In this document: in pieces, positions 28,099 to 57,680 of the stretch
Numbering within the stretch: position 1 is the stretch's first letter
Layout: the number at the start of each line of letters is the position of its first letter
DNA from: Malachius bipustulatus
Taxonomy: Eukaryota; Arthropoda; Insecta; Coleoptera; Melyridae
Length of the DNA stretch: 64,000 bases
Assembly: GCA_910589415.1 (NCBI GenBank)
Contig: OU342631.1
Coordinates: 2,914,001-2,978,000 of the forward strand
Reading direction: 5' to 3'
Translations under genes and position numbers: made by a program
The notes under the pieces: model-generated
Seen by the model: the letters and a program-made list of their open reading frames with translations, nothing else
Databases searched by the model: none
What the model was told of the DNA's origin: nothing

Positions 28099-28162
28099 AT
28101 GAATCGTTCAGCCTTTCAAAAAGTTTCACACTGCATTTTTGATATGGATGGTTTACTGCTCG
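28099..28162 (+). CDS. PUDP: Pseudouridine-5'-phosphatase-like HAD hydrolase, exon 1
   Basis: Encodes 21 codons plus one base before a consensus donor (G|GTAAGT). It contains the HAD motif I, FDMDG (D15 is the phosphorylated nucleophile, D17 the general acid/base), inside CIFDMDGLLL. The next exon supplies the D of LLLD. The family (human PUDP/HDHD1, Drosophila Gs1-like) removes phosphate from pseudouridine 5'-monophosphate in the cytosol, using Mg2+. Joined to exon 2a or 2b and exon 3 the frame gives 237 residues, close to the about 228 of the human enzyme. The start is the only ATG before motif I in this exon and there is no targeting peptide. Confidence in family is high; the exact substrate is inferred. 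Confidence 0.93.
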
Positions 28163-28951: not shown

Positions 28952-30081
28952 TACAGGATGTCCGGAAATTATGCGCAAAAAATTTTCGAAAACTCACAAA
29001 TAAGAAAGTTATGAGCCTTCAAAGTTGATTTTTTTAAATCAATGTTTTTTATAACTTTTTTTCTAGTGTACGGATTTTCTTAAATTTTGACACACACTTT
29101 CCACTGATGTTACTTTACATCCTTGGTCGAAATTAGACTTGAATCCCTCAAAATCAAAAGGCCTTAACTGCCCTTGACCTTCAAAAAAGGCCTATAACTT
29201 TTTTCGTAATATTTTTTTCTGAGTTTTGAAGATCCACAATTAAAGAGCATGAAGAAATATTCGGAAAAGGTCCTCTTTGTCTATCACGATAAAATGACCC
29301 GTTTCCGAGTAAAACTGTTTTAAAAATTTGCTTGCACTAAAATTGATCACCATAAATTATGATCATTTTGCAACAATACCAAAGCATGCTTTGGAAACAG
29401 CTGCAGGGTTGCCTAGTTATGTACAAAACGGAGACATTCGTATATAAATAGACTTGGAAATGATAAAATTTTAAAAATTTTTTATCATTTTTTTTAATAA
29501 AATAACAAAAAATAATTTTAATAAAAAACAAAAATTGCTGTCAAAATGAAATCCAAAGCAAACGCGCCTTGTTTCCTAGGCAACCCTGCAGCTGTTTCCA
29601 AAGCATGCTTTGGTATTGTTACAGAATGATCATAATTTTTTAGTGCAAGCAAATTTTTAAAACAGTTTTACTCGGAAACAGGTCATTTTATCGTGATACA
29701 CAAAGAGGACCTTTTCCGAAGATTTCTTCATGTTCTTCAATTGTGCGTCTTCAAAACGCAGAAAAAAATATTATGAAAAAAGTTATAGATCTTTTTTGAA
29801 GGTCAAGGGCAGTTAAGGCCTTTCGATTTCGAGGGATTCAAGTCTAATTTGGACCAAGGATGTAAAGCAACATCAGTTGCAAGTGTGTCAAATTTTAAGA
29901 AAATCCGTACACTAGAAAAAAAGTTATAAAAAAATATTGATTTAAAAAAAATCAACTTTGGAGGCTTATAACTTTCTTATTTGTGAGTTTTCGAAAAAAA
30001 ATTATGGATACTTTTGGCAATATTTCATCAAGTAGACTCACCCCCTTAATTTTTTGCGCATAATTTCCGGACACCTCTGTA
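28952..30081. mobile_element. Palindromic transposon in intron 1 of the phosphatase gene
   Basis: Opens TACAGGATGTCCGGAAATTA and closes ...TTCCGGACACCTCTGTA. The inverted arms of about 500 bp cover almost the whole 1.13 kb, with CCAAAGCATGCTTTGG (itself a perfect palindrome) near the inner end of both arms. The right arm has an extra segment near 30005-30050. Transcription of the gene would place a very long hairpin in intron 1. A half copy lies at 40494-41075. Confidence 0.88.
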
Positions 30082-31064: not shown

Positions 31065-31283
31065 ATACAGAAACTTTATACACCACAGCTACTCAAAATG
31101 TAGTTTCACGTTACAGTAAAACCTACGACTGGTCAGTGAAATCCCAAGTCATGGGTTTACTGGGCTTTGAAGTGGCCGAAAAGATCATAAAGTGTTTAGA
31201 GCTGCCCATCACTCCACAAGAATATTTAGACATAATTCAAGAGCAATATCAAATTCTAATGCCGACAGCTCAATTAATGCCAG
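31065..31283 (+). CDS. PUDP: HAD phosphatase, alternative cap exon 2a (canonical)
   Basis: 219 nt, entered after TTATTTACAG and left at a GTATGT donor; phase 1 at both ends. Spliced to exon 1 it completes LLLDTETLY and encodes residues 22-94, which form the helical cap that selects the substrate in HAD subclass I enzymes. It carries TYDW.VKSQVMG, LELPITPQEYL and the closing PTAQLMPG, matching my recollection of animal PUDP (W/VKS.VMG, LP.s.EE, PTA.LMPG). It is therefore the conventional cap. It ends in one base that joins GT of exon 3 to form the Gly of MPGAERL. Only 32 nt separate it from exon 2b. Confidence 0.92.
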
Positions 31284-31315
31284 GTATGTATCTGACGATT
31301 TCTTTTCATTTTCAG

Positions 31316-31534
31316 ACACAGAAGGTATTTACAGACGTGCCATCGCTGATATTGCTAAATCTTTCGGGAAAACTTACACACCTCAGATACGGTCAAAAGT
31401 GTTTGGCCGAGTGGGAAAGGAAACCGCTCGAGTCGCTATACAAGAAATGAAATTACCCCTTTCAACTGAAGAATTCCTTAAAAAGTTTGTTGGACAAACA
31501 AGGAAATCTTTGAATATAGTGCATCTCTTGCCAG
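31316..31534 (+). CDS. PUDP: HAD phosphatase, alternative cap exon 2b (divergent duplicate)
   Basis: Also exactly 219 nt, preceded by a pyrimidine-rich acceptor (TTTTCATTTTCAG) and followed by a weaker donor (G|GTTTGA), with the same phase 1 boundaries as 2a. It begins DTEGIY and ends HLLPG, so either exon can link exon 1 to exon 3. Aligned without gaps it keeps about 23 of 73 residues of exon 2a by my count: DTE, the KTY core, G..G.E.A, LP...E, and the final L.PG. It replaces TYDW with TYTP and VMG with VFG. The frame is open and conserved in character, so it does not look dead. A 32-nt gap is too short for normal intron removal, so 2a and 2b should be mutually exclusive. The changed cap suggests a second substrate range. 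Confidence 0.85.
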
Positions 31535-34296: not shown

Positions 34297-37200
34297 TTAC
34301 ATCCACTCTAGCAGGCCACTGCTTTTTAAAAAGCTAATGACCTTAGATGGTGTGAATGTATCCAGGTCTCTCGGAGAGAGAAGTACTTTTCCGAACGTTG
34401 AGTGCCTGGTTCTTCCCAAGGCGGGGCAGTTGCATAGTACATGCTCTGCTGTTTCTACATCCTCCAAACACAGGCGACATTCTGCGTTATCGGCTAGATT
34501 CATCCTGTGTAAGTGGTGGTTCACTTTGCAGTGTCCTGTGTATAGGCCTATTAGGGCCCTTAGGTCAGTCCTTTTGAGTTCCAGTAGCTTTTTAGCTCTG
34601 TTTCTCGAGGGTCCCTCAATGAAGGTCTTAGAGTGAGTTAATCCTGGTAGAGTTTGCCAGTACCGAAGTACCTTGTTTTCCGCCCAGGTGTCTATTGTTG
34701 TTTTGGCAGTATTTGAGGATATGCCAAGAGCAGGTTCCGGTCCTGTAAATTTGGATTCAGTTGCTCTTCTAGCCAGAGAGTCGGCTATTTCGTTCTCTCC
34801 AAGGCCGGAGTGACCTGGAATCCAGACCAGAGTCAAGTTATTGTTTTTAGCTACTTCATTGAGTGCTGCTTGACAGTTCCATACTAGTTTGGAATTGCAA
34901 CGAATGGAGCAAAGGGCTTTTAGGGCCGCTTGGCTATCTGAGAAGATTTTAATTGTTTTCTGCGTGCAGTGCGTTTCAACCAGCATCTGCGCGCTGAGTA
35001 CAATGGCATAAATTTCTGCCTGAAATATTGTTGCGTACTGACCCAGGTTTGCAAAGAATTCTCGTCTTGACCCAGCGTCGTACGCTCCGGATCCAACTCC
35101 CGTTGGAGTCTTTGAACCGTCGGTAAACCACGTGAGGTCTGCTTTGAGGAGGTCGTTTGAGTTACGCTCCCATTCGTCTCTGCTTGGAAAGAGGACGTTG
35201 TATGCAGTGCAGTGGTTTGTTGTGTATGGCATCATGTCTGAGGGCATACCCAGAAGACTGTGACTTTGAGTGTCGTCCAGTAGACTGGTCCGTTCCATGA
35301 CACAAGCCATTTGTGTGCTTCGTGCTACCTGTAGTAGTCTGTAAGTTGTCCATCTGGCCTCTCTTTCCAAGTATATATGGAGTGGAGGAAGGTCCAGAAG
35401 TATTTCCATAGCCACCGACGGTGTGGTGCTCATTGCTCCACTGATTGCCAGGCATGCTTGTCTTTGCAGACTTGACAGCTTCATTTTGGCCAAGGCTTGT
35501 AAGCCTTTGGACCACCAAGCTACACAGCCATATGCGATCATTGGCCTAATGATCGTTACATATATCCAGTGTATTTGCTTGGGACCAGTGCCCCAAGTTC
35601 TTCCACAGATCTTTTTGCAACTCCATAGGGAGAGCTTTGCTCTGTGGATAATCTTTTCCAGATGGGAGTTCCATAGTAGCTTCCTATCAAGTGTGATACC
35701 TAGATATTTAGCCTCCTCCGCAAATGGTATAACTACTCCTTGAAGAGTAGGTGGTATAAGGTCTTCCAGCCTTTTTCGTCTAGTGAATGGTACTATAACA
35801 GTTTTGCGAGGATTTACAGACATCTGCTCCCTCTCGCACCACTGATACGTGACTTGAAGAACTTCCTGAAGGACATTGGATATTGTCCTCTCGGAGTTTC
35901 CTTTGATCATTATTACAAGGTCATCCGCATATGCTTGAACTTCAACTCTCCATAGGGAGAGGATCGCCAGCAGGTCGTCTACAAGAAGGGTCCATAGTAG
36001 GGGGGAGAGTACTCCTCCCTGTGGGCACCCTCTCCCCGGCCTGAAACTGACTTCAACTCCTCCCATCGAGGTCGTTATCATCCTACTATCTAGCATATTA
36101 CGGATCCAGCCGTTTATGACCGGTTCTATTCCTCTGGAAACTGCTGCTTCATACAGTGAGTTTGGTAATGCATTGTTAAATGCTCCTTCTATGTCGAGGA
36201 AGACTCCCACCATGATCTCTTTGTTGTCAAGAGACTTGGTGATCTTCCCCACGAGGTTATTAAGTGCCAAATCGGTTGATTTGCCAGCTTGATAGGCATA
36301 CTGGTGCACATTCAGAGGGTGTGAAACTAAGACACTCCTCCTGATGTGTACATCCAGTATTCTCTCTAGACTTTTCAGTATAAAGGATGTAAGGCTAATG
36401 GGTCTGAATGACTTAGGGTGTGGCTCTGTACGGCCCACTTTGGGAACGTACACCACCCTTGTTGCCGCCCAGCTGGATGGGATGTAGTTCCATGCCAGAC
36501 TAGCCCTAAATAATTTTATAAGAGAGGACGTCAGTATCTTTATGCCCCTTTGTAATAGGGCAGGAAAGATGCCGTCCTCTCCAGGTGTCTTGAAAGGCTG
36601 AAAAGTTTTTACAGCGTTTTCAATTGCCTTGGCTGTAATGATCGAGCGGCAGACTTTCCATTCCGATTTTTGAGGTCGATTTATACGTCCTCCGGAATTC
36701 AGCTGCCACTGATTGTACAGAGGCGAGCTACCTGGGAAGTGATTTTCCTTTAGGAGTTCTAACGTTTCCTTTTCTGAGTCCGTAAATGAACCGTCTGGTC
36801 GTTTTATCGAGCCAAATGGCTGTGTCGGATCTCTTGAGAGAATCTTGTGAATTCTGGCGCTGCGAGGCAGATCATGGATGCTCTCGCAGAACCTTCTCCA
36901 GGACTCTCTTTTAGATCGTCTGATCTCTTTGTAGTACTCCGTTAGCTTAGTTCTGTATTCATCCCAGTTACCCATCTCTTTAGCTCGATTGAAGAGTCGT
37001 CGAACTTCTTTTCTTCTTTTCTCTAGGTCTTTGTTCCACCAGTCGACTTTCCTGTCGTTTCTCTTCGTTTTTGGTGGACAGTTTTCGTGATAGGCTGATA
37101 TTATTGCGTTCCGGACTTGTTCCGCCGCAATTTCAATATCATCACGATTTTTTATTGTGGGGATAACGGTCTCAAGTCCAGTCTGGAGGGATTTTTCATA

Positions 37201-37983
37201 TCCGCTCCAGTCTGTTCTTTTTGGATCACGATATTCCACAATAGGTCTATGACCTATTTCGATGTCGAACACTATTTGTCTATGGTCTGAACAGGAAGGT
37301 TCAGAGGATACCTGCCAGTTGGTTATCCTATTGCTTATAAAGTTTGAGCTGAATGTTATATCTAGTACCTCCTGTCTATTTTTTGTGACGAAGGTTGGTT
37401 TGGAGCCGATGTTATTCACAATAAGTTTTTCACCTATTATAAAGTTATAAAGCGACTCACCTCTTTCGTTGATGTCCGTGCTCCCCCAAGCTAGGTGGTG
37501 CGAGTTTGCGTCACATCCAACGATAAGTTGTAAGTTGTTCCCACGACAATAGGCGACCAGATTTCGCACTATTGTAGGAGGAGGTTGTTCGGCAGATCTA
37601 TCTCCCGGGAAGTATGCTGAGCAGACGATTAATTCCGTTCTGCTGTTCCCCACCGGGAGAGTAACTTTGACTGTCGTAATGTCTCGGGCGCAGTAGTCTG
37701 AAAGGACATAGAAGTTTAAGTTGTTCTTCACCAAGATGCAGGCTCTCGGCGAATGCTCCGAGCCGACTGCTATCACCTTGGCAGATAAGTTTCCCAGGCC
37801 TCTTATTTTGCCAGACTTGTCCAGCCATGGTTCCTGGAGTAGCGCAATGTCAAATTGCTCTCTTATGAACCTCCTGCCAAGAACATAACTTGCTGCTGTG
37901 GCATGTTGGAGGTTGAGTTGTATACATTTTATGTGGGAATTGTGGAGGGGAAATTGGGTGGTAGATTGGGATGTTAGGCACAT
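34297..37983 (-). CDS. LINE ORF2: endonuclease, reverse transcriptase, RNase H
   Basis: 1228 residues, uninterrupted. AP-like endonuclease spans about 18-240: N24, E51 in LLQEPW, CDANSHH with D158, and SDH at 232-234. Reverse transcriptase is about 500-755: PKSFRPISLTS, FLDIEGAF near 595-602, and YADD at 685-688. RNase H is about 950-1075 with all four acidic residues (D955 in FTDGS, E990, D1016 in FSDS, D1068). A C-terminal Zn-knuckle-like CRLC...H..C lies at about 1169-1186. The protein nicks the target, primes reverse transcription there and degrades the RNA template. ATG is at 37983. It lies in the same frame as ORF1, 27 nt after the ORF1 stop codon. All catalytic residues I can see are intact. 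Confidence 0.95.
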   Translation of the reverse strand: MCLTSQSTTQFPLHNSHIKCIQLNLQHATAASYVLGRRFIREQFDIALLQEPWLDKSGKIRGLGNLSAKVIAVGSEHSPRACILVKNNLNFYVLSDYCARDITTVKVTLPVGNSRTELIVCSAYFPGDRSAEQPPPTIVRNLVAYCRGNNLQLIVGCDANSHHLAWGSTDINERGESLYNFIIGEKLIVNNIGSKPTFVTKNRQEVLDITFSSNFISNRITNWQVSSEPSCSDHRQIVFDIEIGHRPIVEYRDPKRTDWSGYEKSLQTGLETVIPTIKNRDDIEIAAEQVRNAIISAYHENCPPKTKRNDRKVDWWNKDLEKRRKEVRRLFNRAKEMGNWDEYRTKLTEYYKEIRRSKRESWRRFCESIHDLPRSARIHKILSRDPTQPFGSIKRPDGSFTDSEKETLELLKENHFPGSSPLYNQWQLNSGGRINRPQKSEWKVCRSIITAKAIENAVKTFQPFKTPGEDGIFPALLQRGIKILTSSLIKLFRASLAWNYIPSSWAATRVVYVPKVGRTEPHPKSFRPISLTSFILKSLERILDVHIRRSVLVSHPLNVHQYAYQAGKSTDLALNNLVGKITKSLDNKEIMVGVFLDIEGAFNNALPNSLYEAAVSRGIEPVINGWIRNMLDSRMITTSMGGVEVSFRPGRGCPQGGVLSPLLWTLLVDDLLAILSLWRVEVQAYADDLVIMIKGNSERTISNVLQEVLQVTYQWCEREQMSVNPRKTVIVPFTRRKRLEDLIPPTLQGVVIPFAEEAKYLGITLDRKLLWNSHLEKIIHRAKLSLWSCKKICGRTWGTGPKQIHWIYVTIIRPMIAYGCVAWWSKGLQALAKMKLSSLQRQACLAISGAMSTTPSVAMEILLDLPPLHIYLEREARWTTYRLLQVARSTQMACVMERTSLLDDTQSHSLLGMPSDMMPYTTNHCTAYNVLFPSRDEWERNSNDLLKADLTWFTDGSKTPTGVGSGAYDAGSRREFFANLGQYATIFQAEIYAIVLSAQMLVETHCTQKTIKIFSDSQAALKALCSIRCNSKLVWNCQAALNEVAKNNNLTLVWIPGHSGLGENEIADSLARRATESKFTGPEPALGISSNTAKTTIDTWAENKVLRYWQTLPGLTHSKTFIEGPSRNRAKKLLELKRTDLRALIGLYTGHCKVNHHLHRMNLADNAECRLCLEDVETAEHVLCNCPALGRTRHSTFGKVLLSPRDLDTFTPSKVISFLKSSGLLEWM

Positions 37984-38010
37984 GAAGGGTATGGGGTGAG
38001 GGGGGAGGGG

Positions 38011-39345
38011 TTATTTCTTTTCTGGTGCAGGCCGGGCGGATTTGTCCTTCCCGGTAGCACCAGAGCTTTCTTTCTGTCTGGGGGGGCGGTTCATTTTTCC
38101 CTTCCCCCCCTTGTATTTGTGCCCTGACGGCCCAGGCCGAGGAGGGGCTGTCCCCCTACCAGGCGGTTTGCGGCCGCTCTGATCTGGGGCAACCCGCATC
38201 TCGGACGGCCCTGCCAAGGCAGCTTGATTTGGGTGCTCCCCTGCCAGAAGGGGCGGTTTTTCGCTCACCTTCGGGGGGGCCCGGTCTCTTATCAGACCTT
38301 CATTTGGAGGGGCTTTTTGGGCTATTCCCCCACCTCGGATCTTAGGGCGGAAAAGCACCCTCCCATTGAGACCGAAGTAGGGTCGGAACCCTAGCCCTTC
38401 AAGTCCTTTCATGGACGCTTCGTCGACGGCGAAGGTCCATGTTTGACCTGGTCCCGAATTTTCGCGGTGTAGAACAATCCACTCCCGCGTGTTCAGAACC
38501 GTGTTCATTTTCCTCAGCCTAGTGAGCACCCTATCCGGAGTGAGGCGATTTTCGTCATCATCCGGGATGAAGGCCACACAGATGTGAGGTTTGGGGATCT
38601 CATCACCTCTCACCGCTTTTAGGAGAGCGCCCTCCCACGGTTTAAGGTCATTAACTGAAGCCTCCAACCAGTTGGCGGCCCTCTCCCCGGCGCAGGTAAT
38701 GAGTAGCCATCCAGGCCGTTTCGAGCAATGCTCGAATCTGACCTCTGGCCCGCCGTCTGGGATTTCCTCTACAGCGGTCAGGATTGACCTCTGCACAGTG
38801 CCCAGTTGCTCGTCACTCAGGGACGCCCTCGGATGGTCTGGGTGGATAATCCCAACCCGTACACCCGCGGCAGCGTCCCCATATGACAACTTATCAGCTC
38901 CTTCCTCGCAGGGCCTTTTTGGCCTCTGTTCAGTTGGAGTGCTTTCCTCCGACCTCCCGCGCTTCGCAGTGACGGATCGTTCTGGGGGGGTTGAGCCCCT
39001 CCCCATTGATCCGGCTGCGTCACGTTCGTCGAGGACTGTTTTCAAAGCGGTCTGGTAGTCAGTCCCGCTTTTTAACATACGACTAAGCCGTTTCCTTGCG
39101 GCTCCGGATAGTCGTGGTTTTCTTGTTGAAGAAGGGTCCGTCTTATCGGACCCCTCTTCAGTCAAGAGTTTTTCCTGACCCGTAGATTCGGGGATTGGGG
39201 ACTTTAACGTCACCCTTTCCCGATCTTCCGGGGTCGGACTGTTATTTGGAGTCGGATTGGTACCAATCTCCATTAGTTCTTCCGTTTCCGGGAGATCGAG
39301 GGTATGGCTCCCCTCGTCGGAGCTAAAGTTCTTGTTAGGTTCCAT
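38011..39345 (-). CDS. LINE ORF1: Gag-like RNA-binding protein (DUF4780-like)
   Basis: I chose ATG 39345 because it has an excellent context (ACCACATGG); the open frame continues about 26 codons upstream but without an ATG. The protein has 444 residues. There is an acidic Ser/Thr/Pro-rich N-terminus, then LSGAARKRLSRMLKSG, a basic spacer, and a folded domain (about residues 157-336) with WLEASVNDLKPWEGALLKAV, LRKMNTVLNTREWIVLHREN and a GL..LGFRPYFGLNGRVLF core that matches my picture of insect DUF4780. The C-terminus is basic and Pro/Gly-rich. I see no CCHC zinc knuckles, unlike many I/jockey ORF1 proteins. It probably binds the element's RNA. It ends in TAA, in frame with ORF2. Confidence 0.85.
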   Translation of the reverse strand: MEPNKNFSSDEGSHTLDLPETEELMEIGTNPTPNNSPTPEDRERVTLKSPIPESTGQEKLLTEEGSDKTDPSSTRKPRLSGAARKRLSRMLKSGTDYQTALKTVLDERDAAGSMGRGSTPPERSVTAKRGRSEESTPTEQRPKRPCEEGADKLSYGDAAAGVRVGIIHPDHPRASLSDEQLGTVQRSILTAVEEIPDGGPEVRFEHCSKRPGWLLITCAGERAANWLEASVNDLKPWEGALLKAVRGDEIPKPHICVAFIPDDDENRLTPDRVLTRLRKMNTVLNTREWIVLHRENSGPGQTWTFAVDEASMKGLEGLGFRPYFGLNGRVLFRPKIRGGGIAQKAPPNEGLIRDRAPPKVSEKPPLLAGEHPNQAALAGPSEMRVAPDQSGRKPPGRGTAPPRPGPSGHKYKGGKGKMNRPPRQKESSGATGKDKSARPAPEKK

Positions 39346-39744
39346 GTGGTTCCCACGAGAAGCTAGGGAAAATGATGTTCCCCGAAACCAGAGCCCTGCA
39401 TGGAATGGGGAGGCTATGTACAACGGGGTTTCGCCCGGTGCCCCGAGGTTAGGTCCAGTAGAGACTGGTCTCCTATCCAGCCACGCATCCTATCGGCCTG
39501 GACCTCCGCTTTAGGATTTAGGTTTTTGATGAGGTTGTCTCCTCTTGGTTCAGGCGGTTAAGCCAAAACCCCCACATCTCTCTGCTCGCGAGACATGTCC
39601 ACGGCAGCAGAAAGATACGGTTTAACGGATAGTCAACAATTAGACGTTCTCCGGCGCCGTAAGAAACCCCTGTGCTAACCCTTTAGTCACGACACGACAA
39701 CTAGGTTGGGGGAGGTGGTCCGCGGCAGGGCTTTAAGCTGCCAG
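39346..39744 (-). promoter_or_regulatory. LINE 5'UTR with presumed internal promoter
   Basis: About 400 bp between the 5' junction (CTGGCAGCTTAAAGCCC on the minus strand) and the ORF1 ATG, with no TE-foreign sequence. LINEs of this type carry internal promoters; no specific motif is claimed. Confidence 0.5.
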
Positions 39745-39758
39745 TCATAGGCGGGAGT
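39745..39758. repeat. Target-site duplication of the LINE, 5' side
   Basis: TCATAGGCGGGAGT, partner of 34191-34203 with one inserted base. Confidence 0.85.
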
Positions 39759-40437
39759 GGATATTCCTGCTGCGCTGTAGTTGCACAGTGCTGTTATGGA
39801 GTCCTTTTCATTTCCTGAAGCGACTTCATAAAGGTTTTTGAACTGACTTCTTTTAGGTACTAAAACCAATCCTGACTTCATACACGTTCTCATGCCTGTC
39901 TCATCTGCATTAAAAATGCGAGTTGGATCAGCCATTAAATCTATATTATCTTCGGTCTCAAGATACTCTCTCAATTCTTTAAACCACTGAAGAATGGCAT
40001 CTTCTGTAACAGACGCACGACTTTTTGAAATTATTTCAGTATTTCGTTTAGCAATTAGCGGATGCCTTTGCAGAAATAATTTAAACCATTTGTCTCCAGG
40101 TCTATCGTCTGTAAACTTATGTGACCTGGGAGCAGCCTTCAAAATCTTTTGGACGGAGTCTTTGACTTCGTCTGGATGCATCGGAAAGCCTAATTTGGCC
40201 TTTGCTAGGATCCAATGCTCGAAACGTTCCTCTTCAGCAAGAGTTAAAATTGGTTGAGGACCCATTTGCCTTAGGTTTGGGACTTTCCCAGTAATTTTAT
40301 TATGTAACGTTGATTTTGGGATAGAATATTTGAATGAAGCTTTGCTTATGCTGATATTTCCAGAATTTATTCCCAAGATAGCGTTCGCCAGGTCAGGTCT
40401 TCTGAATAAGCGAACCGTGAATAATTTTTTTCTCCAT
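39759..40437 (-). pseudogene. Transposase N-terminal half (Tigger-like)
   Basis: Minus-strand reading begins near an ATG at 40437 preceded by an acceptor-like TTTTTAG. NYSRFAYSEDL, then after a frameshift LANAILGINSGN and SFKYSIPKSTLHNKITGK, form a psq-type helix-turn-helix. A CENP-B-type DNA-binding segment follows (EERFEHWILAKAKLGFP ... GDKWFKLFLQRHP). The first catalytic Asp is in RIFNADETGM, then ITALCNYSAAGISTP just at the LINE insertion. At least two frameshifts lie upstream of the psq domain (an A-run near the ATG, and GACCTGACC). It is broken by the LINE at the border. Confidence 0.88.
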
Positions 40438-43104: not shown

Positions 43105-43535
43105 GTGCCGAAAGACTCCTGCAACACTTTCACCAATCAAACATCCCAATTGCACTTGCAACTTCATCATCCAAAGAATCCTACGAGCTGAAAGTAGTGA
43201 ATCACAAAGAATTATTCGCTCTATTCAATCATCAAGTTTTCGGCGGTTCAGACCCGGACGTCAAGAAGGGGAAACCAGCCCCGGATGTGTTCCTGGTGTG
43301 CCAGTCCCGTTTCGCAGACAAACCATCTCCTGAACAATGCTTGGTGTTCGAGGATTCTCCAAACGGTGTTCAAGCAGCCAGAGTAGCCGGAATGCAAGTT
43401 GTGATGGTTCCCGATAATCAGGTCGATGAGAAGGACAGAAAGGACGCGACGTTGGTTTTGAATTCACTGGAAGAATTCAAACCGGAAGAATTTGGGTTAC
43501 CGCCTTTTAAAAATCCTTGTGGAACTAAGTGTTGA
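43105..43535 (+). CDS. PUDP: HAD phosphatase, exon 3 (core domain) and stop
   Basis: Acceptor TATTATTTCCTCAG; phase matches both cap exons (split Gly in PGAERL). It encodes residues 95-237 of the joined protein: motif II in IPIALATSSS (Thr/Ser 114-115), motif III Lys in KKGKPAPD (K151), motif IV in LVFEDSPNG (E177, D178), then AGMQVVMVPD and the conserved tail LEEF.PE.FGLP. All four HAD motifs are intact. The reading is better balanced in GC than the flanks, as expected for coding sequence. The ATTAAA at about 43573 may serve as poly-A signal. The gene is convergent with the PfkB kinase exon at 47.3 kb. Confidence 0.95.
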
Positions 43536-47269: not shown

Positions 47270-47820
47270 TCATAGTATATTTGTAAATTTGGCTGCCTCC
47301 GTCCAGCAAACATGATTTCGTCCGAACATTCTGTCAGGTACAGCATGCGAAGAACGTAATGAACATTTAGCTGCCTGGAAACCAACTGACATGCACATTT
47401 CTTCGCTCAATCCTTCGAGCATTGCCATAATGACTCCACTCGCAAAACAATCACCAGCACCACTTACACTGACAATTTTCTTCATTGGCTGAATTGGATA
47501 ATGTCTGGCTTTGGCTTCGCCTTCGTAATCATTTTTTCCAGCCGTCAGTAAAGGATCGCTTGGACTGCTTCGACTTACAACCATCACCCCAAGTTCGTCC
47601 ATTGTTGGCATTACGACTGGAAAATACTTCGTCAAGGCTTTTGCCATCAGTGCAACCTGTTCTAATTTATTAGCAGAAGCAGAAGACTCCGCTACTTCAA
47701 GATTTAAATGGTTTGTTAGAAAGGTAAGTTCGCCTATATTGGGCGTTATGTAAGAAATGTGCATGTTCTTTACTTTGAAAACTTTTTCTACGACTGATAT
47801 ATCGGTTGGCTCTAAGAAAA
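47270..47820 (-). CDS. PfkB-family kinase (pseudouridine-kinase type), last exon
   Basis: Minus-strand exon entered after a good acceptor (TTCTTCATTTCAG), phase 2, ending in TGA at 47270. Reads FLEPTDISVVEKVFKV, ISYITPNIGELTFLTN, then VVMPTMDELGVMVVSR, VSVSGAGDCFASGVIMAML (PfkB signature 2; the Asp of GAGD is the catalytic base and its GAG the anion hole), and a tail FQAAKCSLRSSHAVP. The EPTD, PNI.EL and AA..SL.S..AVP features point to the pseudouridine kinase branch, which in many animals is the C-terminal part of a bifunctional pseudouridine-5'-phosphate glycosidase/kinase. It would convert pseudouridine to pseudouridine 5'-phosphate using ATP. Upstream exons were not found, so either they lie beyond the claudin-like gene or this is an isolated copied exon. 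ATG 47764 is internal and not the start. Confidence 0.85.
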
Positions 47821-48870
47821 CTGAAATGAAGAATAAAATAAATTACACCAGTATTCAAAAAATGGTCAAATGATAAAAATCAAATAATTTATACCTAACT
47901 CCTCTTTAAAAAATACAATTTTATAAGTTTTATTTCAGAAAAATGTTTGCAGATGGAAAAATAGATCATTCCTGCGTCGTGCTAAAATCAATAAACGCGT
48001 TTATTGATATCATGTTGATTATTAATTCTAGAGGATTAGGTTTTAAGCCTTAGACAAGCGGACAAAGAAATAGCTTAAACTTTTCAAATTATTTTTTAAC
48101 TTTTAATATGAATTTAATAGTTATCTGTATATTTGCGCCGCGAAATCATTCTTTAACGTACCAAGAGGAAGAGGCTGCTTGTAGCCATGACAAGGTAGGG
48201 AACCTGTTTTACCGACACTGACGCGTACTAGTAAGCGTCAGTGTCGGTAATGCAGGTTCCCTAAGGCAATCTCGAGGGAGGACATTATGTAGCCGCAGTA
48301 TACACAAATTTTTTGTGCAATTGTATACATAGAATCCTTAATAATAATAATTATAATAATTATTATTGATTAAATTTTTAGAATAATAATTTTTGTCCTA
48401 AATAGAATGACGGTCGGCTTTCGTGTTACTATGGAAAATGAGATAAGGACTAATTATTGTTCATTCTCGTGTGTCAAAATAATAATATAAAAGTAACAAT
48501 CATTAGTTTAAAGGCCGTCGGTATGACAACGGCCGCAAAATTGGTACTTCGCGTTCAATTGCACAAAAAATGAATTTATGTTGAAATTAGGATGAATGCA
48601 TGAATGAGTGAATTTGAATGAATTTTTAATAACACATTTCTATTGCTTTTACATTTTTCGCAATATCCCGCCAGATTATTTAGTTAGTTCCGTAGTAACT
48701 TCATTACTTTTATTAGTTATGTTATTACAAACGAATACTTTGTTTTAATTGGTTGTCAATTGTAGTACGCACGCGTAGTAAATGGAGGCCTGCTGTAAAT
48801 TGCATACCATTGACATTAATGTCATGACAAGTCAATTAGACAAGACTGACATGACAAGAGAGAAATATTG
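47821..48870. other. DNA between the kinase exon and the claudin-like gene
   Basis: No further kinase exon could be recognised on the minus strand. Contains the hairpin at 48197-48262 and a TAATAATAATTAT tract at about 48340-48365. The last part is presumed promoter of the plus-strand claudin-like gene. Confidence 0.45.
48197..48262. repeat. Compact 66-bp hairpin
   Basis: AGGGAACCTG..TTACCGACACTGACGC pairs with GCGTCAGTGTCGGTAA.TGCAGGTTCCCT around a GTACTAGTAA loop. Only one small bulge. It is more GC-rich than its surroundings. It could be a tiny MITE or a stem-loop precursor; nothing further shows function. Confidence 0.8.
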
Positions 48871-49037
48871 ACTTATTTTATTATTAATAAATAATAATAA
48901 TAATTAGTAATATTTTCATCATTTTCACAACCTCCTAGATAAAAATTAAAAGAAAAAGAAACAAAACCAAACCAATAGCCAAGCAAAATCAAAATAGGCA
49001 TTGGTGTTATGATATAACCAGAAATTTCAACGAAAAA

Positions 49038-49170
49038 ATGAAGACGAAAACGGGAATTTGTGCTTGTATAGTAACTGCAGTGGCTTTCTTTTTCATCATA
49101 ATTGCGTTTTGCACGCCATATTGGTTGGAAAACGATCAAAAAATCAAAGATCCCAAGTTCGTTCGCATAG
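49038..49170 (+). CDS. Claudin-like tetraspan membrane protein, exon 1
   Basis: ATG at 49038 (AAAAAATGA context) begins MKTKTGICACIV and a first transmembrane helix (residues about 7-26), then TPYW with W29. The exon ends in phase 1 at a good donor (G|GTGAGT). Claudin-family proteins build occluding/septate junctions or act as related tetraspan proteins in epithelia. The Gly-Leu-Trp signature is split by the intron here (RIG|LW). The two exons together encode 220 residues, normal for the family. Upstream 5'UTR is A-rich and TE-free for about 150 bp. Confidence 0.9.
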
Positions 49171-50041
49171 GTGAGTGTTGTAAAGGAGTGGTCACTGGTC
49201 ACTCGGTCAGTAAGTTTACAAGAAAATTTACCCATTAAAAAGGGTTCGGAAAACAAGATGCGGAATTCCTTCTTGCAGCCTGCAAGAAATCTTCTTGTTT
49301 TTAACTATCAGTCCTCAGCCGCCTCTAATAAAATCATTCTTTCCATAACTTCTCTATGATTCATCAGTGTTCATCATTCAAATGAATCAATTCAATTCAA
49401 ACTAAGAGTTTATACTTTTATGAACTTAACAAGAATTATTTCAATAGGTACAAGATAAATACTGATTAAAAATTAGTAGACCCTGGTGCAGGGCCGTAGC
49501 TAAATTCTAATGTTGGGAAGGGCCGACAAATATTTTGGAAGGGCGAATTTATCAAACATTTACACATATTTTAGATGCAGTTGCTGTTATATCTAATTAT
49601 CTCATCATAGTGGTTCGCAATAGGCTCCACTCCAACCGGGGAGGGGGGTCTAGGCGGTATGGACTACCCCAGGCGGAAAGAGAGGGTCTGCCTATGGAAA
49701 AGTTTTCAAAAAAATTACTCAAAAAAAAATTAAAGGCATTTTACATGCGAACGCACAATGAAAATTTCAATTTGCTTTTTTGCCAGGATGCGGATCAACG
49801 ACAGTAGTGGATCAATAATGTGGGAGGGAAGGTTAAGAATTTCATGAATTCAAGATTTTATGACAATCCCAGATAATCTCGAAATTTTGTTGGAGTAAAA
49901 AATTCAGAGAATACCTAACTTTGTACAGTTTTGCGTGTCTGTTTTTGTGAGGAACATGATGCTCAATTATAAGACATCATCTTAGGAAAAAGAGTTGTTA
50001 CTCTCTAAGGTTTAGGTTTAGTCACCCTTCTGAAATACTTA
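49171..50041. other. Intron 1 of the claudin-like gene, first part
   Basis: AT-rich intron DNA. GGGCCGTAGCTAAATT-like text near 49490 resembles the end of a dispersed repeat. No coding. Confidence 0.5.
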
Positions 50042-50326
50042 TACAGGGTGTTTACTGTAAGGTTGCCCTAACTTCACAGGCTGATTCTTCAGACTAAAAT
50101 AAACAAAAAATTGCATTACTCCTCAAGTGCATTGTTGTTTTAAACTCGGGTACCACTTTCTGTAGGATTGCCAGAAATTGTTCCTAGAACAATTGGACCG
50201 AATTCACTTTGGCCAATCTTGCAGACTTCGACAATCATGTCAGATTGATATGGATTTTTTTAATATGTCAGCTGTTGAAATTAATTTTTACGGATAAAAA
50301 CAGAATAACTCCGCATCTACTTTACA
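50042..50326. mobile_element. Solo end of a TACAGGGTG palindrome
   Basis: TACAGGGTGTTTACTGTAAG begins a typical arm but no matching right arm was found. It runs up to the next element, which may have replaced or interrupted it. Confidence 0.5.
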
Positions 50327-51172
50327 TACAGTGTGTGTCACAGGCATGGTAAACCCCTTTTTTTTCTTTTTTTTTAAGATAATTTTTTGAAATTTGGTAC
50401 GTCGCATATTCTCGATAGAGCGCACTTTTTAGCAGAAAATTGAATTTTTTCCCACATCCGGTTTTTCCGGAAATGTTACCAACTTTTTATTTTTAAATGG
50501 GACATCCTATATATTATTACATTTTTGGATTCTATACAATTGTACGAATCCAACAATACCACATAAGTACCGTTTTAAATGTCAAATTTGTTTTTATTGA
50601 ATTTTTTATTTCTCAATTATAGTGTGCCACGACTATTTCGTTTTACTCCAACTGGATCATTTGAGGCTATAACAATCGAATTTTTGTTCAAATTACTAAA
50701 TTAAGTGATTTATAGATAAATTATGTGCACCGGAATGATTTTTTGAGCTGGATTCATTTTTTTCAAATGGTACCACATTGGTACCGAGGTACCATCTACT
50801 AGTACTCTTAATAAGGGACATTTTGGTGTACCCATTTTGCATCTGTTTTACGAACACAACTGAAGTCATGGTACACTATAATTGAGAAATAAAAAATTAA
50901 ATAAAAACAAATTTGACATTTAAAATGGTACTTATGTGGTATTGTTGGATTCGTACAAATATATGCAATCCAAAAATATAATAATATATAGAGTGTCCCA
51001 TTTAAAAATAAAAAGTTGGTAACATTTTCGGAAAAACCGGATGTGGGAAAAAATCAATTTTCTGCTAAAAAGTGTGCTCTATCGAGAATGTGTGACGTAC
51101 CAAATTTCAAAAAATTATCTCCAAAAATAAAGAAAAAAAAGGGGGTGTACCATGCCTGTGACACACACTGTA
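50327..51172. mobile_element. Palindromic transposon, TACAGTGTGTGTCACAGGC ends (copy A)
   Basis: TACAGTGTGTGTCACAGGCA at the left and GCCTGTGACACACACTGTA at the right. Inverted arms of about 370 bp include ATTCTCGATAGAGCGCACTT, CATCCGGTTTTTCCGG and AATGGGACATCC. The centre is short. A second copy occurs at 61296-62397. Located in the intron of the claudin-like gene. Confidence 0.9.
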
Positions 51173-51398
51173 TTCTTTTAAGCTTGGGGGGAGGGGGATG
51201 TGTAACCTAGGTGTAGAAGCGACACTTCTTTTGTAAAATGAACGAATTTTCATTTTCCCGGTGGCATCTTAATTATTTCCAGTTTTTAAAGTGTCATTAA
51301 ATCAGTAAAAATTGCTGTTTTAGAGAAATTTTTCTTATAAGAATGCAACCAGTATAGGAAGAAGTATTAGTTGGGACTGTGTGTATGTACATGTTTTC

Positions 51399-52262
51399 AC
51401 AAGGCGCGCTAAAAAAAATGGGTGTCTTCTAAAAATTAGATCCATACAGGGTGATTTTAGTCCTTTTTTTTGCTGTTTTTTTTTGTTTTGAAAAAATATG
51501 TATTTTGGTGGAAAATTTTATAGGACTAAAGTTGTAGAGCGGAAAATTTCCAAAATTTTGGTTATATAACTTTTTTGCAAATTCTGCATAGTTTCGCCGT
51601 GCAATTTGTCTAAAAAAATCCAATAAGAATAGTTTTTACAGTTGCAGTTTGAAATAAGTAGTATAAGCTATAAACAAAAATGGATATCACAATATTCCAA
51701 CTTTAAAGCCATTTACAATGAAAAAGGCCCAAGACATTGGAAACGTCTTGCATGTCCCTATCTAAAATTTTTATCTGGTGTCCTATTGTGTAGGTATGTA
51801 GTTGAAATGTTTATGCAGGGTGGTGAGAATTATCAGATTTTTCTAGGGTGTCCTATAATTGCATTTGAAAAAAAAGGTGTAACTTTCTTTAGCAATTAAA
51901 ATGTGCCTTTATCTTATTTTAAGCCAAAACTGGTCATTTTGCAGAAGGATACCATCAGACAAAACTTGTAGAGCGGAAAATTTAATATAATTTTGATTTT
52001 ATAACTTTTTTGCAAATTCTGCATAATTCCGCCACTAGAGGGCGCTAAAGATTTTATATTTACTTTTGCATTTTTCATAGATTTTAGGCTAAATCTTTCG
52101 TGGAATATAAAAAGAGATCAAAAAATGAAAACCAGATGTAGGAAATTTTCCTCTCTAATACTTTTGTCTAATGGCATCTTTCTCCAAAATACATAGCTTT
52201 TCATCAAAACAAAAACGACAAAGACAAAAAATCACCCATTTTTTTTAGTGCGCCTTGTGAAA
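51399..52262. mobile_element. Inverted-repeat element with a split left end
   Basis: CACAAGGCGCGCTAAAAAAA TGGGTG at the left is mirrored by CACCCATTTTTTTTAGTGCG at the right. On the left, about 29 bp including TCCATACAGGGTG intervene before the arm continues with ATTTTAGTCC. Within the element TTGTAGAGCGGAAAATTT plus TATAACTTTTTTGCAAATTC appears twice in direct orientation (51530 and 51967). The region may therefore be a composite of two insertions. No coding of note. Confidence 0.65.
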
Positions 52263-52618
52263 AATATGTTTACACAATCCCAATCCTTCTTGTCACATAC
52301 AGGCCTACAGGTCGCATTGCTGTAGGAAAAATGTCTTTATTGTCTTTGCTGTAAGAAAAATGTTTCCTAATTTGAAGGAATTTTTTTACTTTTTCTATCG
52401 CCCACCTATGTCCACCCAGCTCTTTTTTCCCTTAGTGTAAACTAAAGCTTGCACATATTTCCTTATAAATATAATCCAAATATTCCAATAATCTGGCACC
52501 TCCTAGTCATAAATAGTTAGAATTGGTTCCTCCTAGCCTTTAATAGTGCCAGATTAGTGAGATTCTACTGTAATGCCTTATTTACAACCATATTAAAAAA
52601 TTGTCTCTTTCTTTCCAG

Positions 52619-53148
52619 GACTTTGGGAGGTATGTTTTGAAAACTTTGAAGACTTTCGCCATCACTACGACTATCGGTTTACCGGTTGCTGGTGGGTCTT
52701 CGAAGAAGAATATTACATAATCGACGATTTCCTCTTGCCGGGCTTCTTTGTCGCAACGCAGTTCTTCTTTACTTTATGCATGACCTTAGTGTTAGTGGCA
52801 GCCTTTCTCACGTGGCTGTACTGCTTCTGCAGCAGATACCATGACAAATTCATCCTCCTGTTGCTTAGCAATGGTGCGAATCTGATTCTAGCCGGTATAT
52901 TCGGGTTTATCGCCGTATGCATATTCGGAGCAAGAGGAGACGGCAGGGACTGGATGCCATACTGGCAGCACAATAATCTGGGATGGTCTTTTGCGTTCGC
53001 AGCCGTGGGATCTTTGTTGCTTTTCCCGGCTGGTGCACTGTTCCTTGTGGAAGCCCGTAGAGCTAGATATCGTCGACTGAATGCTGGATCTCCGCCTCAG
53101 TCTTCCTATGGAATGGATGAACGAAAACCTGCCCATACTGATATTTAA
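52619..53148 (+). CDS. Claudin-like tetraspan membrane protein, exon 2 and stop
   Basis: Acceptor TTTCTTTCCAG. Joining gives GLWEVCFENF and, 18 residues on, GCWW, which completes the W-GLW-C-C signature of claudins (W29, G45-L46-W47, C50, C68). Transmembrane helices follow at about 86-112 (LPGFFVATQFFFTLCMTLVL), 122-145 (ILLLLSNGANLILAGIFGF) and 163-185 (WSFAFAAVGSLLLFPAGALF), giving four in total. The motif GARGDGRDWMPYWQHNNLGW forms the second outside loop. The C-terminus is short and polar (SSYGMDERKP). Insect tetraspan junction proteins have this plan; I cannot say which ortholog. Stop at 53146-53148. Confidence 0.93.
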
Positions 53149-54730
53149 GTGTATCGAATTTCGATTATTCAATAAGAGTAATCAATTCTAACAAATGAAT
53201 TCTAACTTGAATAGTTGTGTTCTGCTTACTGATTTTTATTCAATGATTGAGTAAGTTTTTTGAACAAATTGTTTTGAATAAATTGATCTTGGACGTTTAA
53301 TAATACCTCGACCTTGATGGTTTATGCGTATTTACGATTAAATCGTGACATAATTATGTCTTATAAGGACTTTGAAAATTAGTGTAACCTATTATTATAA
53401 TTTGAATTAAACGTCTAAAATCCATTTTATTTTTAAAGAATTTATTGTTTTTGTATTAAATGTTCTAGTTATTATTATAAAAACGAATTACTTAAAATTT
53501 TATTGATGTATTTTTTGAGTATTATTATAGTCTATTAACTTAAATACGTTATGTACCTAACTACTAAACAAAATTTGTGTCGCCTTGTAAATTTTAAAGC
53601 ACAAATTATTGAAGAGTGCTTGGCTTGTATTTTATATTAAATTTACAGGATCATCTCCAGAAGAATATCTTGATAAAATTGAGAATAATAGAGAAAAGTA
53701 GATCTTTGCCATAAACTTGTTTAAAAGTCTATTATGAAATCTATTTTTGGGATTCTTTCATAAAAAATATGATGATGATCTTAAAAATTAATGAGTAGTT
53801 AAAAGAAAACTGCCAGCTAATCGAACTATATCACAGTTACAATCACCAACCAAAAGTGTATTATGCCAAAAATATCACATAACCGTGTCTTAGCAGCTTT
53901 CTTAGTTCTTATTTGTGAACAGTATTATCGTAGACAAGGAAAGAGATGCGCAACGCTCATTTATGAACCATATTATAGCAATTTATATTATACTATTATG
54001 TATTCTGTCAAAAAGTGTAATAGTTAATTTGTTCAATTTTTCATTCGGTTGTTGCAATCAAAATAAGGAAACACATTAAATTAATTTACAAATACTCTGA
54101 CAGGTTGGTGTGGTGCCATTTGGTCACACTCACAATCAGTTGAGCGTCCTCTCTCCTTCCTTGTCTGATAAGAGTATTAAGTATAAGTTGATTTGTGTTA
54201 TTATTTTATCAGGTTTATTATTTCATCCCCAAGCTTACTTAAATGATAATTGAAATCTCATATACTCTATTAAGAAAATATAAGGTATGATTAATTTAGG
54301 TTCATTGTGTAAAGTTTAAATTTTTGTATGAAATTGTTGAGAGATATAGTTGGATATTTTTGCAAGGAGTTTTTAGTTTTAGTGATTATTAAAGGTACTA
54401 AATTATCCGTCCATGGAAATTATTGAGCAGTCGAATTTATTGTTTTTTTTTTTTTAGCAAATGATCACAAGATCACAAGAATATTAAAACCTTGCCTAGA
54501 TCTTTTTTTTATAAAAATATATAATTATACGGTATTATGATAGATGTAATTTTGTATCTATGTATTTATTGAAATCGCTTTTAACACTATTAAAGTATTT
54601 TTATATAAATATACACTAGATAACTATTTGAATAAAAAATATAATATTGCAATCTCATTTTGTACAATGTACCAATATGTAATAACTTGTTTAATGTTTA
54701 ATTAATAAAATATTAAACAGTAGCATTGTG
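53149..54730 (+). other. Presumed 3'UTR of the claudin-like gene
   Basis: Repeat-free AT-rich DNA directly after the stop. AATAAA occurs at about 53277 and 54707, so short and long 3' ends are possible. No other gene was recognised. Confidence 0.45.
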
Positions 54731-55253
54731 GGAATTTTATTAGAAGTAGTTCAAGTATACAACTATTGTGTTTTTTGATCTTAATAAGTTAAACCTTGGG
54801 CAAAATTACCGTATTGTGAAATTGTTTTCAGTGTTCTTAGGACAATTCTAGCAATTTTAACTGGTGGTGTGAATAGATTGTTTATGGTTTTTCTCTTATT
54901 CCTTTGCCCTGAGGTAATTTCGCCAATCTTCGCGGCGGGTCGACTCTGGTGATTAAAAGTAGCGAGCGGCAAGTTATTTCATAATAATGATGTAGGATTT
55001 CACAGAAAATAACATTAAAATTACTAGAGATTACACACTAATTTCTTCACATGGTCTGATAGTTTTTTTGATTTAATTCTCTCGCCAAGCCTTGCTATAA
55101 AATAAATTATCTATGTACCTATAATAATAATACCACTGGGAGATAGGTATACCATACCTACTAAAGAACCAAAATTTTACCATATTTTAATGCACAATCT
55201 GAAGCACTTTTTTCAAAAAATTCGATTATATTTATCATAGAATGGATTATTTA
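54731..55253. other. No gene recognised
   Basis: A 63-codon minus-strand frame (54781-54972) has no recognisable motif. Remaining sequence is AT-rich. Confidence 0.35.
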
Positions 55254-56573
55254 TACAGGGTGTATCAGAGATGTTGGGCTAAATTTGAAGGAGTGGTTCC
55301 TTTCATAAATTTGAGTTAAAAAATAAGTTTAAGCTCAAAATGACGTTTCGTTTAAAAGATAAAGGGTGTTATTGAACTTAAAAAAATATAAGAGTTTTTG
55401 GTTATAACTTGTGTAAATTTAAACCGATTTTGTTGATACTTGGTATGAACAATAAACAAACAAAGGCCTTTAATTTAGCTATTTCAGATTTTATGAATGT
55501 CTTCCAGTGACATAGATATTTAGGGCTTTTTCTCTTTTCCCTCCGTATCTTTTACGCCGCTGACTTTTTTCCAATTACAGAACCGTTATTCGATTACCCA
55601 TACATTTTACAAAAAAAGTATATCTTAATGTTTTTCATGCGGCCCACCGTTTTTGAGATACTAGAAGTTTCCTCAATAAGAAATGTCACTAATCTAATAT
55701 TCAGGGTTGGAGTCACTTTTTTCTCCCTGTCTTCCACGCTACTGACTTTATTGCAAATACAAACGTTGTTTATTAGCCAATGAATTAGAGAATCAAAAAG
55801 TATTCTTTAGTTTTTCCCATACGATGCACTATTTTTGAGATATTTAAAGTTTCCTCGGGCAATGTCACTAATCATCATTAATAATAACATCTTGCATAAA
55901 AATTCTAGTCGGATAAATTTTAATGAAATGCAACAATTTTGTAATGTAAATTGCCCAACATTACCTGACAAAAATTAAAATATTTCAAAAACCTAATTTA
56001 TGATTGATATGAAAAAACCTAAAGGATAGTTTTTTATTCTAAATTGCTTGGGCTATTGCAGAATGGTTTTCTATTAGCAATAAATAAGTCAGTGGCGTAA
56101 AATATGGGAAGGGAAAAGTAGCTCCAATCTTGACTATGCCACTGGAAAACATCTACAAAATCTGAAATACCCAAATTAAAGAGCTTTGTTTGCTTATTGT
56201 TCGTGCAGACTTAATTTCATCAAAATCGGTGTAAATTTACACGAGAGTTTATAACCAAAAACTCTTATTATATTTTTTTAAAGTTTGGCACCCTTTGTTG
56301 TCCGTATTCACAAACAATAATTTCCTAAATAATTACGTAATTAATTAAATGAGTGAGATGGAGATATATGCAGTTTTTTTGCAATAGAATGAGATGGGGA
56401 TAATTGATTACGTAATTATTTAGGAAATTATCGTTTGTGAATACGGGCAAGACGGGCATGTATCTTTTAAACGAAACATATCATATTTTGAGCTGAAACT
56501 TATATTTGTTTCTTACATTTATGAGGGGAATCACCCCTTCAAGTTTGGACCAACATCTCTGATACACCCTGTA
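55254..56573. mobile_element. Palindromic transposon, TACAGGGTG ends (family 8)
   Basis: TACAGGGTGTATCAGAGATG and its complement bound 1.32 kb. Arms pair through CAAAATGACGTTTCGTTTAA. The echo appears as AAGGGTG at 55362, 106 bp inside. In the left half a unit of about 180 bp (CTTTTCCCTCCGTATCTTTT ... GTTTTTGAGATACTAGAAGT) is repeated in tandem at about 55525-55700 and 55712-55875. A smaller palindrome (56302-56447) is inserted in the right arm. Confidence 0.85.
56302..56447. mobile_element. Small hairpin element nested in family 8
   Basis: CCGTATTCACAAACAATAAT at the left pairs with the right end (...CGTTTGTGAATACGG). Arms of about 50 bp, loop about 45 bp containing GAGATGGAGA and GAGATGGGGA. 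It interrupts the CACCCTTT echo of the host arm. Confidence 0.8.
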
Positions 56574-57680
56574 CCTACCTATAGTGCTTATATTTATAGC
56601 TTTAAAACGCTAGTATGCTAAATCTTCACTTATTAAAAATTAGCAACTGATGTAGAAGCAGCTAAAGTTGGCGGTTTTTTCTCCTTGTGTGGGATAAACA
56701 AATAAGATTTTGCTGGAACTATAGGTAGCTATATTACCTACTACAATTAACGCCCTCCATCTTTCACACTCACGCAGCTCGGAAAACTTGTGTTATAAAG
56801 AAGTTTGAAAGTTTCGAATGAATTTTTGCAAAAGTTAAAACAATAACAAAAAACGCTCAGTTTTCATTTTTTTATTGCAATTTTTTTTTATTTGTGTACC
56901 GAGTTTAATTTATTAAAGTATCAATAATTATTATTAGTACCTAATTAGTCATTTTTATGACGCAAATGCGCACAATCTCAAATATATAGGTACTATTTTT
57001 AAATTTTTGTCAATGACTGCATGACCTGTGTGGTTTTTTCTGTTTTCAATAATAATACAAAAAAAACTTATTGGTAATAAGTATACCTATACTACCTACC
57101 TATTTTTTTGATTTATATGTAAGGAGGTATATACCTAACTGCCTATACTGTTTAAATAAAACAATGACACCGCAGCAATTTTTTTGAGACTATTAAAGAT
57201 GAAAATGGCATTTTCTGTAATCGACCCCACAACACATTTAGCAATAAAATCCCTTCTAAGATTGTTCCAGGAATATGTAAAGTATTTTTTTTATACTTTA
57301 ATAACTTTATTTAGGTATAGCAGGTAGGTATATCGAGTTATATTTATATTATTATGCCCTGCATTAAGGTACCTACTATTAATCATCCATGCATGCCGCA
57401 GTCAAGAAAGCATTGGATAGGCATCATAAAACTTATAGTTACCTACCTACCAACCAACCTAAGAATAATTATTATTAATTAATTAAAAAGGAAATAATCA
57501 AACATGAATCATATAATATACAGTCATATAATATTCTCTACATTCGTAAGTATATGTGGTATGTGACTGTAGGTAACTAATTAATTACCTACTGGGTAAA
57601 AAATCACGAAATAATGTATAAGTAGCTAGTAGCTGAGGAAATAGGTCATCGTGTAAATATGCGATAATGGCAGGTACACA
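56574..57680. other. AT-rich DNA with a repeat remnant and TAGGTAGGTA tracts
   Basis: Includes the half element at 56622-56835. Beyond it are several GTAGGTACCTAC-type short repeats (57080-57450) and no gene. Confidence 0.4.
56622..56835. repeat. Half copy of the 23240-24500 palindromic family
   Basis: GCTAAAGTTGGCGGTTTTTT, CCTTGTGTGGGATAAACAAA and CGGAAAACTTGTGTTATAAA match, in reverse complement, the order found at 23215-23390. Only one arm is present. Confidence 0.65.

What the first reader, a model, noticed from the sequence alone, without database searches (positions are those of the whole stretch)
31065..31534. Two equal-length, phase-matched cap exons: a probable mutually exclusive switch in a pseudouridine phosphatase
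Exons 2a and 2b are both exactly 219 nt, share phase 1 at both ends, begin with the same DTE codons after a split Asp and end with PG. They are separated by only 32 nt, too short for an ordinary intron. Each would supply the whole substrate-specificity cap between the same catalytic core pieces (exons 1 and 3). 2a resembles the conventional PUDP cap; 2b is about 31% identical by eye and changes TYDW and VMG positions. One locus may therefore make two phosphatases with different substrates. HAD subclass I caps are known to determine substrate choice; mutually exclusive splicing of the cap is, to my knowledge, not a described mechanism for this enzyme.
Basis: partly seen in the sequence, partly recalled or inferred. 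Interest (0 to 1): 0.92.

Follow-up and report, generated by a model that had tools for sequence, protein, structure and literature searches.

The report
Alternative cap exons in pseudouridine phosphatase
A beetle-like gene for an enzyme thought to clear pseudouridine phosphate carries two interchangeable versions of the exon for its substrate-gripping lid; the arrangement is ancient in insects and was already seen in a fruit fly, but whether the two forms act on different substrates is untested.

Summary
Exons 2a (31065-31283) and 2b (31316-31534) are both 219 nt, phase 1, and encode ungapped 73-residue caps with 22/73 identity. Joined to exons 1 and 3, each gives a 237-aa pseudouridine-5'-phosphatase (PUDP/HDHD1/Gs1l family). 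The 32-nt gap holds a branch-point-like CTGAC 12 nt from the 2a donor, so a 2a-2b splice is implausible; retaining the gap frameshifts. The best reading is a mutually exclusive pair, neither new nor recent. Five named insect species have two proteins with near-identical cores but a- or b-type caps. In a tree of 98 caps, b-type caps form one side of a branch (96/96) spanning beetles, flies, Hemiptera, Orthoptera and a cockroach; sisterhood of the window's two caps is rejected (p-AU 0.0001). A substrate switch is plausible (class-specific residues around a cap loop) but unproven; Hopkins modelled both forms as practically equivalent to the human enzyme. No RNA data were available, and 17 of 220 relatives are annotated with tandem caps.

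The parts
28099..28162 (+). Exon 1, coding part: start codon to phase-1 donor GTAAGT; carries the FDMDG motif (nucleophile motif of HAD enzymes, recalled)
   Evidence: tblastn
31065..31283 (+). Exon 2a: a-type (conventional PUDP) cap, 219 nt; acceptor TTATTTACAG, donor GTATGT
   Evidence: trees (nearest Leptinotarsa isoform X1, 100/81 and 100/83)
31284..31315 (+). 32-nt gap between the cap exons: holds the 2a donor, a branch-point-like CTGAC (A at +12), a pyrimidine-rich stretch and the 2b acceptor
31316..31534 (+). Exon 2b: b-type cap, 219 nt; acceptor CATTTTCAG, donor GTTTGA (weak by eye)
   Evidence: trees (inside a 10-row beetle b-type set, 96/85 and 95/84)
43105..43535 (+). Exon 3: rest of the HAD core, shared by both isoforms, to the stop

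Best explanation
This is the insect pseudouridine-5'-phosphatase gene (PUDP/HDHD1, Drosophila Gs1l) with an ancient, tandemly duplicated cap exon spliced in a mutually exclusive way. Inferred: the spliceosome pairs the exon 1 donor with either the 2a or the 2b acceptor. Joining 2a to 2b is blocked because the gap is only 32 nt and the likely 2b branch point lies 12 nt from the 2a donor; failures retain the gap and hit a frameshift. 2b ends in a weak donor, so its inclusion is probably regulated. Both proteins keep the same core and should be active phosphatases. The different cap probably tunes substrate choice, affinity or cap closure, but a true change of substrate is only a hypothesis (about one in three).
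For: Anatomy. Same-species pairs with over 97% identity in the 125 residues after the cap and 16-23 of 74 identical cap residues: Zophobas morio, Malaya genurostris, Sabethes cyaneus, Ceratitis capitata, Anopheles bellator. AU tests: WINa+WINb as sisters p 0.0001; 17 beetle caps as one clade p 0.009; 41 fly caps as one clade p 0.048. Mean identity over 91 non-independent species pairs: a-a 50%, b-b 45%, core 69%, a-b 26-28%. Structure proxies fold alike with four cap helices: Zophobas b form pLDDT 93.5, Leptinotarsa a form 94.9; best PDB match of both is human HDHD1A 3l5k, TM 0.94. Cloned 1/2/4 and 1/3/4 variants in D. montana.
Against: No RNA evidence from this species. 17 of 220 fetched relatives carry two or three caps in tandem in one predicted protein, 11 insect and 6 decapod, so strict exclusion may fail in some lineages or gene predictors may have joined the exons. 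In Hopkins et al., 12 long clones held both exons: 9 retained the intron, 3 lacked it and were suspected artefacts. Against a substrate switch: they modelled the two short forms as practically equivalent to human HDHD1A, and WINb departs from its own class at 3 of 7 b-fixed positions (53 R for T, 55 G for E, 61 V for I). WINb is only 32-36% identical to b caps of mosquitoes and Clunio, hardly more than to their a caps (24-33%).
Confidence: 0.85

Rival explanations
1. 2b is a decaying or unused exon copy; only 2a is spliced into real transcripts.
For: 2b has a weak donor (GTTTGA), lacks some of its class residues, and no transcripts were available.
Against: 2b is open, in phase, bounded by AG and GT, and sits inside a b-type set conserved across insect orders; relatives' b caps are in annotated isoforms.
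Confidence: 0.08
2. Both exons are joined in one transcript, giving a double-cap protein.
For: 2a+2b is in frame; 17 of 220 relatives are annotated with two or three caps.
Against: The gap is 32 nt with a branch-like A 12 nt from the donor, shorter than insect introns normally are (recalled); in D. montana 9 of 12 long clones had retained the intron and its stop.
Confidence: 0.06
3. A sub-reading that fits the splicing of the best explanation: the two isoforms are real but catalytically equivalent, and the choice serves regulation (stability, partners, developmental or cold response).
For: Hopkins et al. [quoted passage not shown] the proxies fold alike.
Against: Five of the seven b-fixed positions lie at 47-61, in and around the loop between cap helices 2 and 3, and the two classes are old. 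Hopkins et al. also wrote that functionality or efficiency may differ.
Confidence: 0.5
4. 2b arose by a recent tandem duplication in this lineage.
For: The two exons are adjacent.
Against: AU p 0.0001 for WINa+WINb as sisters and 0.009 for 17 beetle caps as one clade.
Confidence: 0.01

Closest known systems
Drosophila montana Gs1l exon 2 / exon 3 alternatives (Hopkins et al. 2018, PMC5953924; abstract, passages and the whole Discussion seen)
   Same: Four-exon layout; short variants 1/2/4 and 1/3/4 of identical length swap residues 25-94; most long forms retain the exon 2-3 intron, which adds a stop; homologous to human HDHD1A.
   Different: Another insect order; in the parts I read the exon pair is not traced to other insects and not called mutually exclusive; the length of their exon 2-3 intron was not seen by me.
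Isoforms X1/X2 of insect pseudouridine-5'-phosphatase (Zophobas, Malaya, Sabethes, Ceratitis, Anopheles bellator)
   Same: One core with an a- or a b-type cap.
   Different: Predicted proteins; only names and sequences were seen, not the reads behind them.
Tandem homologous mutually exclusive exons in general (Dscam1, Mhc, PKM; listings and passages)
   Same: Homologous neighbouring exons of which one is used.
   Different: Here the unit is the whole cap of a HAD phosphatase.
Human PUDP/HDHD1A (3l5k, 9m7l)
   Same: Sequence and fold; an a-like cap.
   Different: The three vertebrate rows of the tree all lie outside the b side; human alternative exons were not examined.

Membership tests
Pseudouridine-5'-phosphatase (PUDP/HDHD1/Gs1l) | Near full-length similarity to human PUDP, best of all solved structures | tested here: met
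   E 7.7e-75 (a form) and 2.9e-66 (b form), residues 7-229
Pseudouridine-5'-phosphatase (PUDP/HDHD1/Gs1l) | Hydrolyses pseudouridine 5'-phosphate | not testable with these tools
   Needs an enzyme assay
HAD hydrolase with C1 cap | HAD_2 profile and a helical cap inserted after the first motif | tested here: met
   PF13419 E 8.5e-23 and 1.6e-23; four-helix cap in both proxy models, which are relatives, not the window's own proteins. The name C1 is recalled
Mutually exclusive exon pair | Homologous neighbours of equal length and phase, either one keeping the frame | tested here: met
Mutually exclusive exon pair | Double inclusion prevented | tested here: inconclusive
   32-nt gap and near branch point argue for it; double-cap gene models in 17 of 220 relatives argue against it as a general rule
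Mutually exclusive exon pair | Transcripts of each form and none with both in this species | not testable with these tools
   No RNA reads; in D. montana both short forms were cloned, with 12 long clones too
Ancient b-type insect cap | 2b groups with other insects' b caps, not with 2a | tested here: met

The most novel reading that the evidence does not exclude
Since the common ancestor of the neopteran insects, one PUDP gene has encoded two phosphatases through a swap of the whole cap. The b cap (RxKxxG[T/R]xE-type loop) turns the enzyme to a different phosphate ester, and splicing, perhaps driven by cold, diapause or tissue, chooses between clearing pseudouridine phosphate and that second substrate. 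Decapods and a moth duplicated the same exon on their own.
Probability: 0.33. Interest if true: 0.72.

Novelty: new member of a known kind. Interest (0 to 1): 0.42.

Why it matters
It suggests that the whole substrate-recognition lid of a HAD enzyme has been held as two alternative exons across insect orders, and offers a clean pair of proteins (same core, two caps) to test how caps set substrate choice. It also flags annotated 'double-cap' proteins that may be exon-joining errors.

Tried and rejected
A third cap exon in the window: none, 48 matches outside the two exons, best E 0.086. Recent duplication: rejected. Searching with the cap alone found 5 relatives of 19 candidates for 2b and 101 of 102 for 2a, so the b side of the tree rests. 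A pseudouridine glycosidase (psuG) exon in the window: nothing convincing with the E. coli protein, best E 0.11. Further exons of the neighbouring kinase at 47831-57500, minus strand: no PfkB match. Papers: ten searches were answered, all seen as listings; besides Hopkins et al. no listed paper was recognised as describing these exons. The Kassiopeia paper has no match for the terms tried and the exon-switching paper PMC7954323 none for Gs1 or pseudouridine. Hatje and Kollmar 2013, which may list Gs1l, is not held. No nucleotide sequence of relatives was available, so dN/dS was not computed. No splice-site model was run. The genome search did not complete, so the genome behind the window was not searched. 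The collections of viral and bacterial contigs were not scanned.

Full report
Observation. Exon 2a (31065-31283) and 2b (31316-31534) are each 219 nt, phase 1 at both ends, bounded by AG and GT, and their 73-residue products align without a gap at 22/73 identities. Exon 1 (coding 28099-28162) plus either cap plus exon 3 (43105-43535) is a 237-residue open frame. Exons 1 and 3 each have one strong match in the window, their own.

What it is. Both isoforms match human pseudouridine-5'-phosphatase over nearly the whole length (E 7.7e-75 and 2.9e-66) and the HAD_2 profile. Models of relatives, Zophobas for the b form and Leptinotarsa for the a form (not the window's own proteins), have four cap helices each and the same best PDB match, human HDHD1A 3l5k, TM 0.94. 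The exon runs from the DTE to the PG that flank the cap, so the exon is the cap. The host is probably a beetle: 2a is nearest Leptinotarsa (64%) and 2b nearest Tenebrio (54%); this is inference.

How exclusive. The gap is GTATGTATCTGACGATTTCTTTTCATTTTCAG, 32 nt, with a branch-like A 12 nt from the 2a donor. Steric exclusion of this kind is known from other genes (recalled). Retaining the gap shifts the frame to a stop. The 2b donor GTTTGA is weak by eye; the three acceptors have similar pyrimidine content (0.70 for 2a, 0.75 for 2b and exon 3). No splice-site model was run. Against strict exclusion, 17 of 220 fetched relatives carry two or three caps in one predicted protein: 11 insect proteins, including a Choristoneura moth with two a-like caps and a Harmonia with b before a, and 6 proteins of 4 decapod species; 202 carry one and one carries none at the threshold used. 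Whether the double-cap proteins are real cannot be told from here.

Conservation. One search found 18 pairs with over 97% identity after the cap but different caps: the window; five named species (Zophobas morio, Malaya genurostris, Sabethes cyaneus, Ceratitis capitata, Anopheles bellator); two pairs of sister Anopheles species; and ten pairs that all use one Culex pipiens protein (P0084), eight of them with unnamed proteins. Each of the pairs measured joins an a- and a b-type cap. Cochliomyia hominivorax has a b form and an a+b form. In the tree of 98 caps, from 77 of the 220 fetched proteins plus the window, 49 rows form the b side (96/96): beetles, flies, Laodelphax, Lycorma and Aphis, Anabrus and Schistocerca, Blattella. 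The vertebrate, tick, mite, spider, myriapod, decapod, moth and ant rows lie outside. Four beetle rows with a b-type cap (Aquatica, Trypoxylus, Nicrophorus P0097, Tribolium madens P0089) group with the fly b caps and not with the other beetle b caps, so there may be separate single-cap gene copies. Without seven long-branch rows the split is 47 b against 18 a plus 26 others, 100/95. Sisterhood of the two window caps is rejected (p 0.0001), as is one clade of 17 beetle caps (p 0.009); one clade of 41 fly caps only just (p 0.048). There are only 74 columns, the root is not fixed, and the main search was ranked by likeness to the b isoform, so b-type rows are over-sampled and absence from a group is not shown; for Hemiptera and Orthoptera only b-type caps were in the tree. 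Over 91 species pairs from 14 sets (not independent; one set joins two sister species) b caps are 45% alike, a caps 50%, cores 69% and a against b 26-28%; b-b exceeds both cross values in 87 of 91 pairs and a-a in 90 of 91. For the window against mosquitoes the b-b value is low (32-35%). This is what two constrained homologous exons look like, but it is no dN/dS.

What may differ. Positions nearly fixed in one class and rare in the other (18 a, 43 b caps): fixed in b are 47 R, 49 K, 53 T, 55 E, 61 I, 75 F and 87 L; fixed in a are 26 L, 28 T, 31 T, 32 Q, 47 K, 53 L, 75 Y and 87 M. Positions 47-61 lie in and around the loop between cap helices 2 and 3, which in beta-phosphoglucomutase holds the substrate-contacting Arg49 (recalled; R49 variants are listed). 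The window's 2b keeps R47, K49, F75 and L87 but has R53, G55 and V61. A change of substrate preference is plausible and not shown.

Prior work. Hopkins et al. 2018 (PMC5953924; abstract, passages, whole Discussion) cloned Gs1l variants 1/2/4 and 1/3/4 in Drosophila montana, found the exon 2-3 intron retained in 9 of 12 long clones, saw different responses of the two exon regions to cold acclimation and dsRNA, and modelled both short forms as practically equivalent to human HDHD1A; they also wrote that the difference may be enough for different functionality or efficiency, and asked for activity tests. The phrase 'mutually exclusive' occurs there only in a cited title. Ten answered paper searches, seen as listings, showed no other description.

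Verdict. An ancient cap-exon pair in insect PUDP, most likely mutually exclusive; a new species instance of a known arrangement; substrate switch open.

Noticed in passing
window 47270-47820 (- strand): Last exon of a PfkB-family kinase (Pfam E 3.3e-12), convergent with the phosphatase gene 3.7 kb from its stop; best PDB sequence match 7c1x (E 7.8e-07), recalled as Arabidopsis pseudouridine kinase. If right, two pseudouridine-pathway genes are neighbours. E. coli psuK matches it only weakly (E 0.57), and its other exons were not found in 47831-57500.
   Followed up: partly
window 28959-30073: About 1.1-kb foldback inverted repeat in intron 1 (arms up to 251 nt, 93% complementary), probably a mobile element.
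   Followed up: no
window 34297-39423 (- strand): Non-LTR retrotransposon with two long open frames in the last intron: 1228 aa with endonuclease, reverse transcriptase and RNase H, and 470 aa with DUF4780.
   Followed up: no
window 39687-40376 (- strand): Transposase-like fragment with weak Psq and Tc5 DNA-binding matches.
   Followed up: no
window 49040-53148 (+ strand): Claudin-like gene: a first exon by eye near 49040 and an ORF at 52735-53148 with Claudin_2 (E 8.1e-19).
   Followed up: no
P0012, P0027, P0030, P0062, P0075, P0096 (decapods); P0117 (Choristoneura): Two or three tandem a-like caps in one predicted protein, probably from exon duplications apart from the insect a/b one.
   Followed up: partly
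P0020 (Harmonia axyridis): Predicted double-cap protein with the b-type cap before the a-type cap, the reverse of the window's order.
   Followed up: no
P0064, P0071, P0089, P0097: Beetle proteins with b-type caps that group with the fly b caps and not with the other beetle b caps; possibly separate gene copies with a single b-type cap.
   Followed up: no
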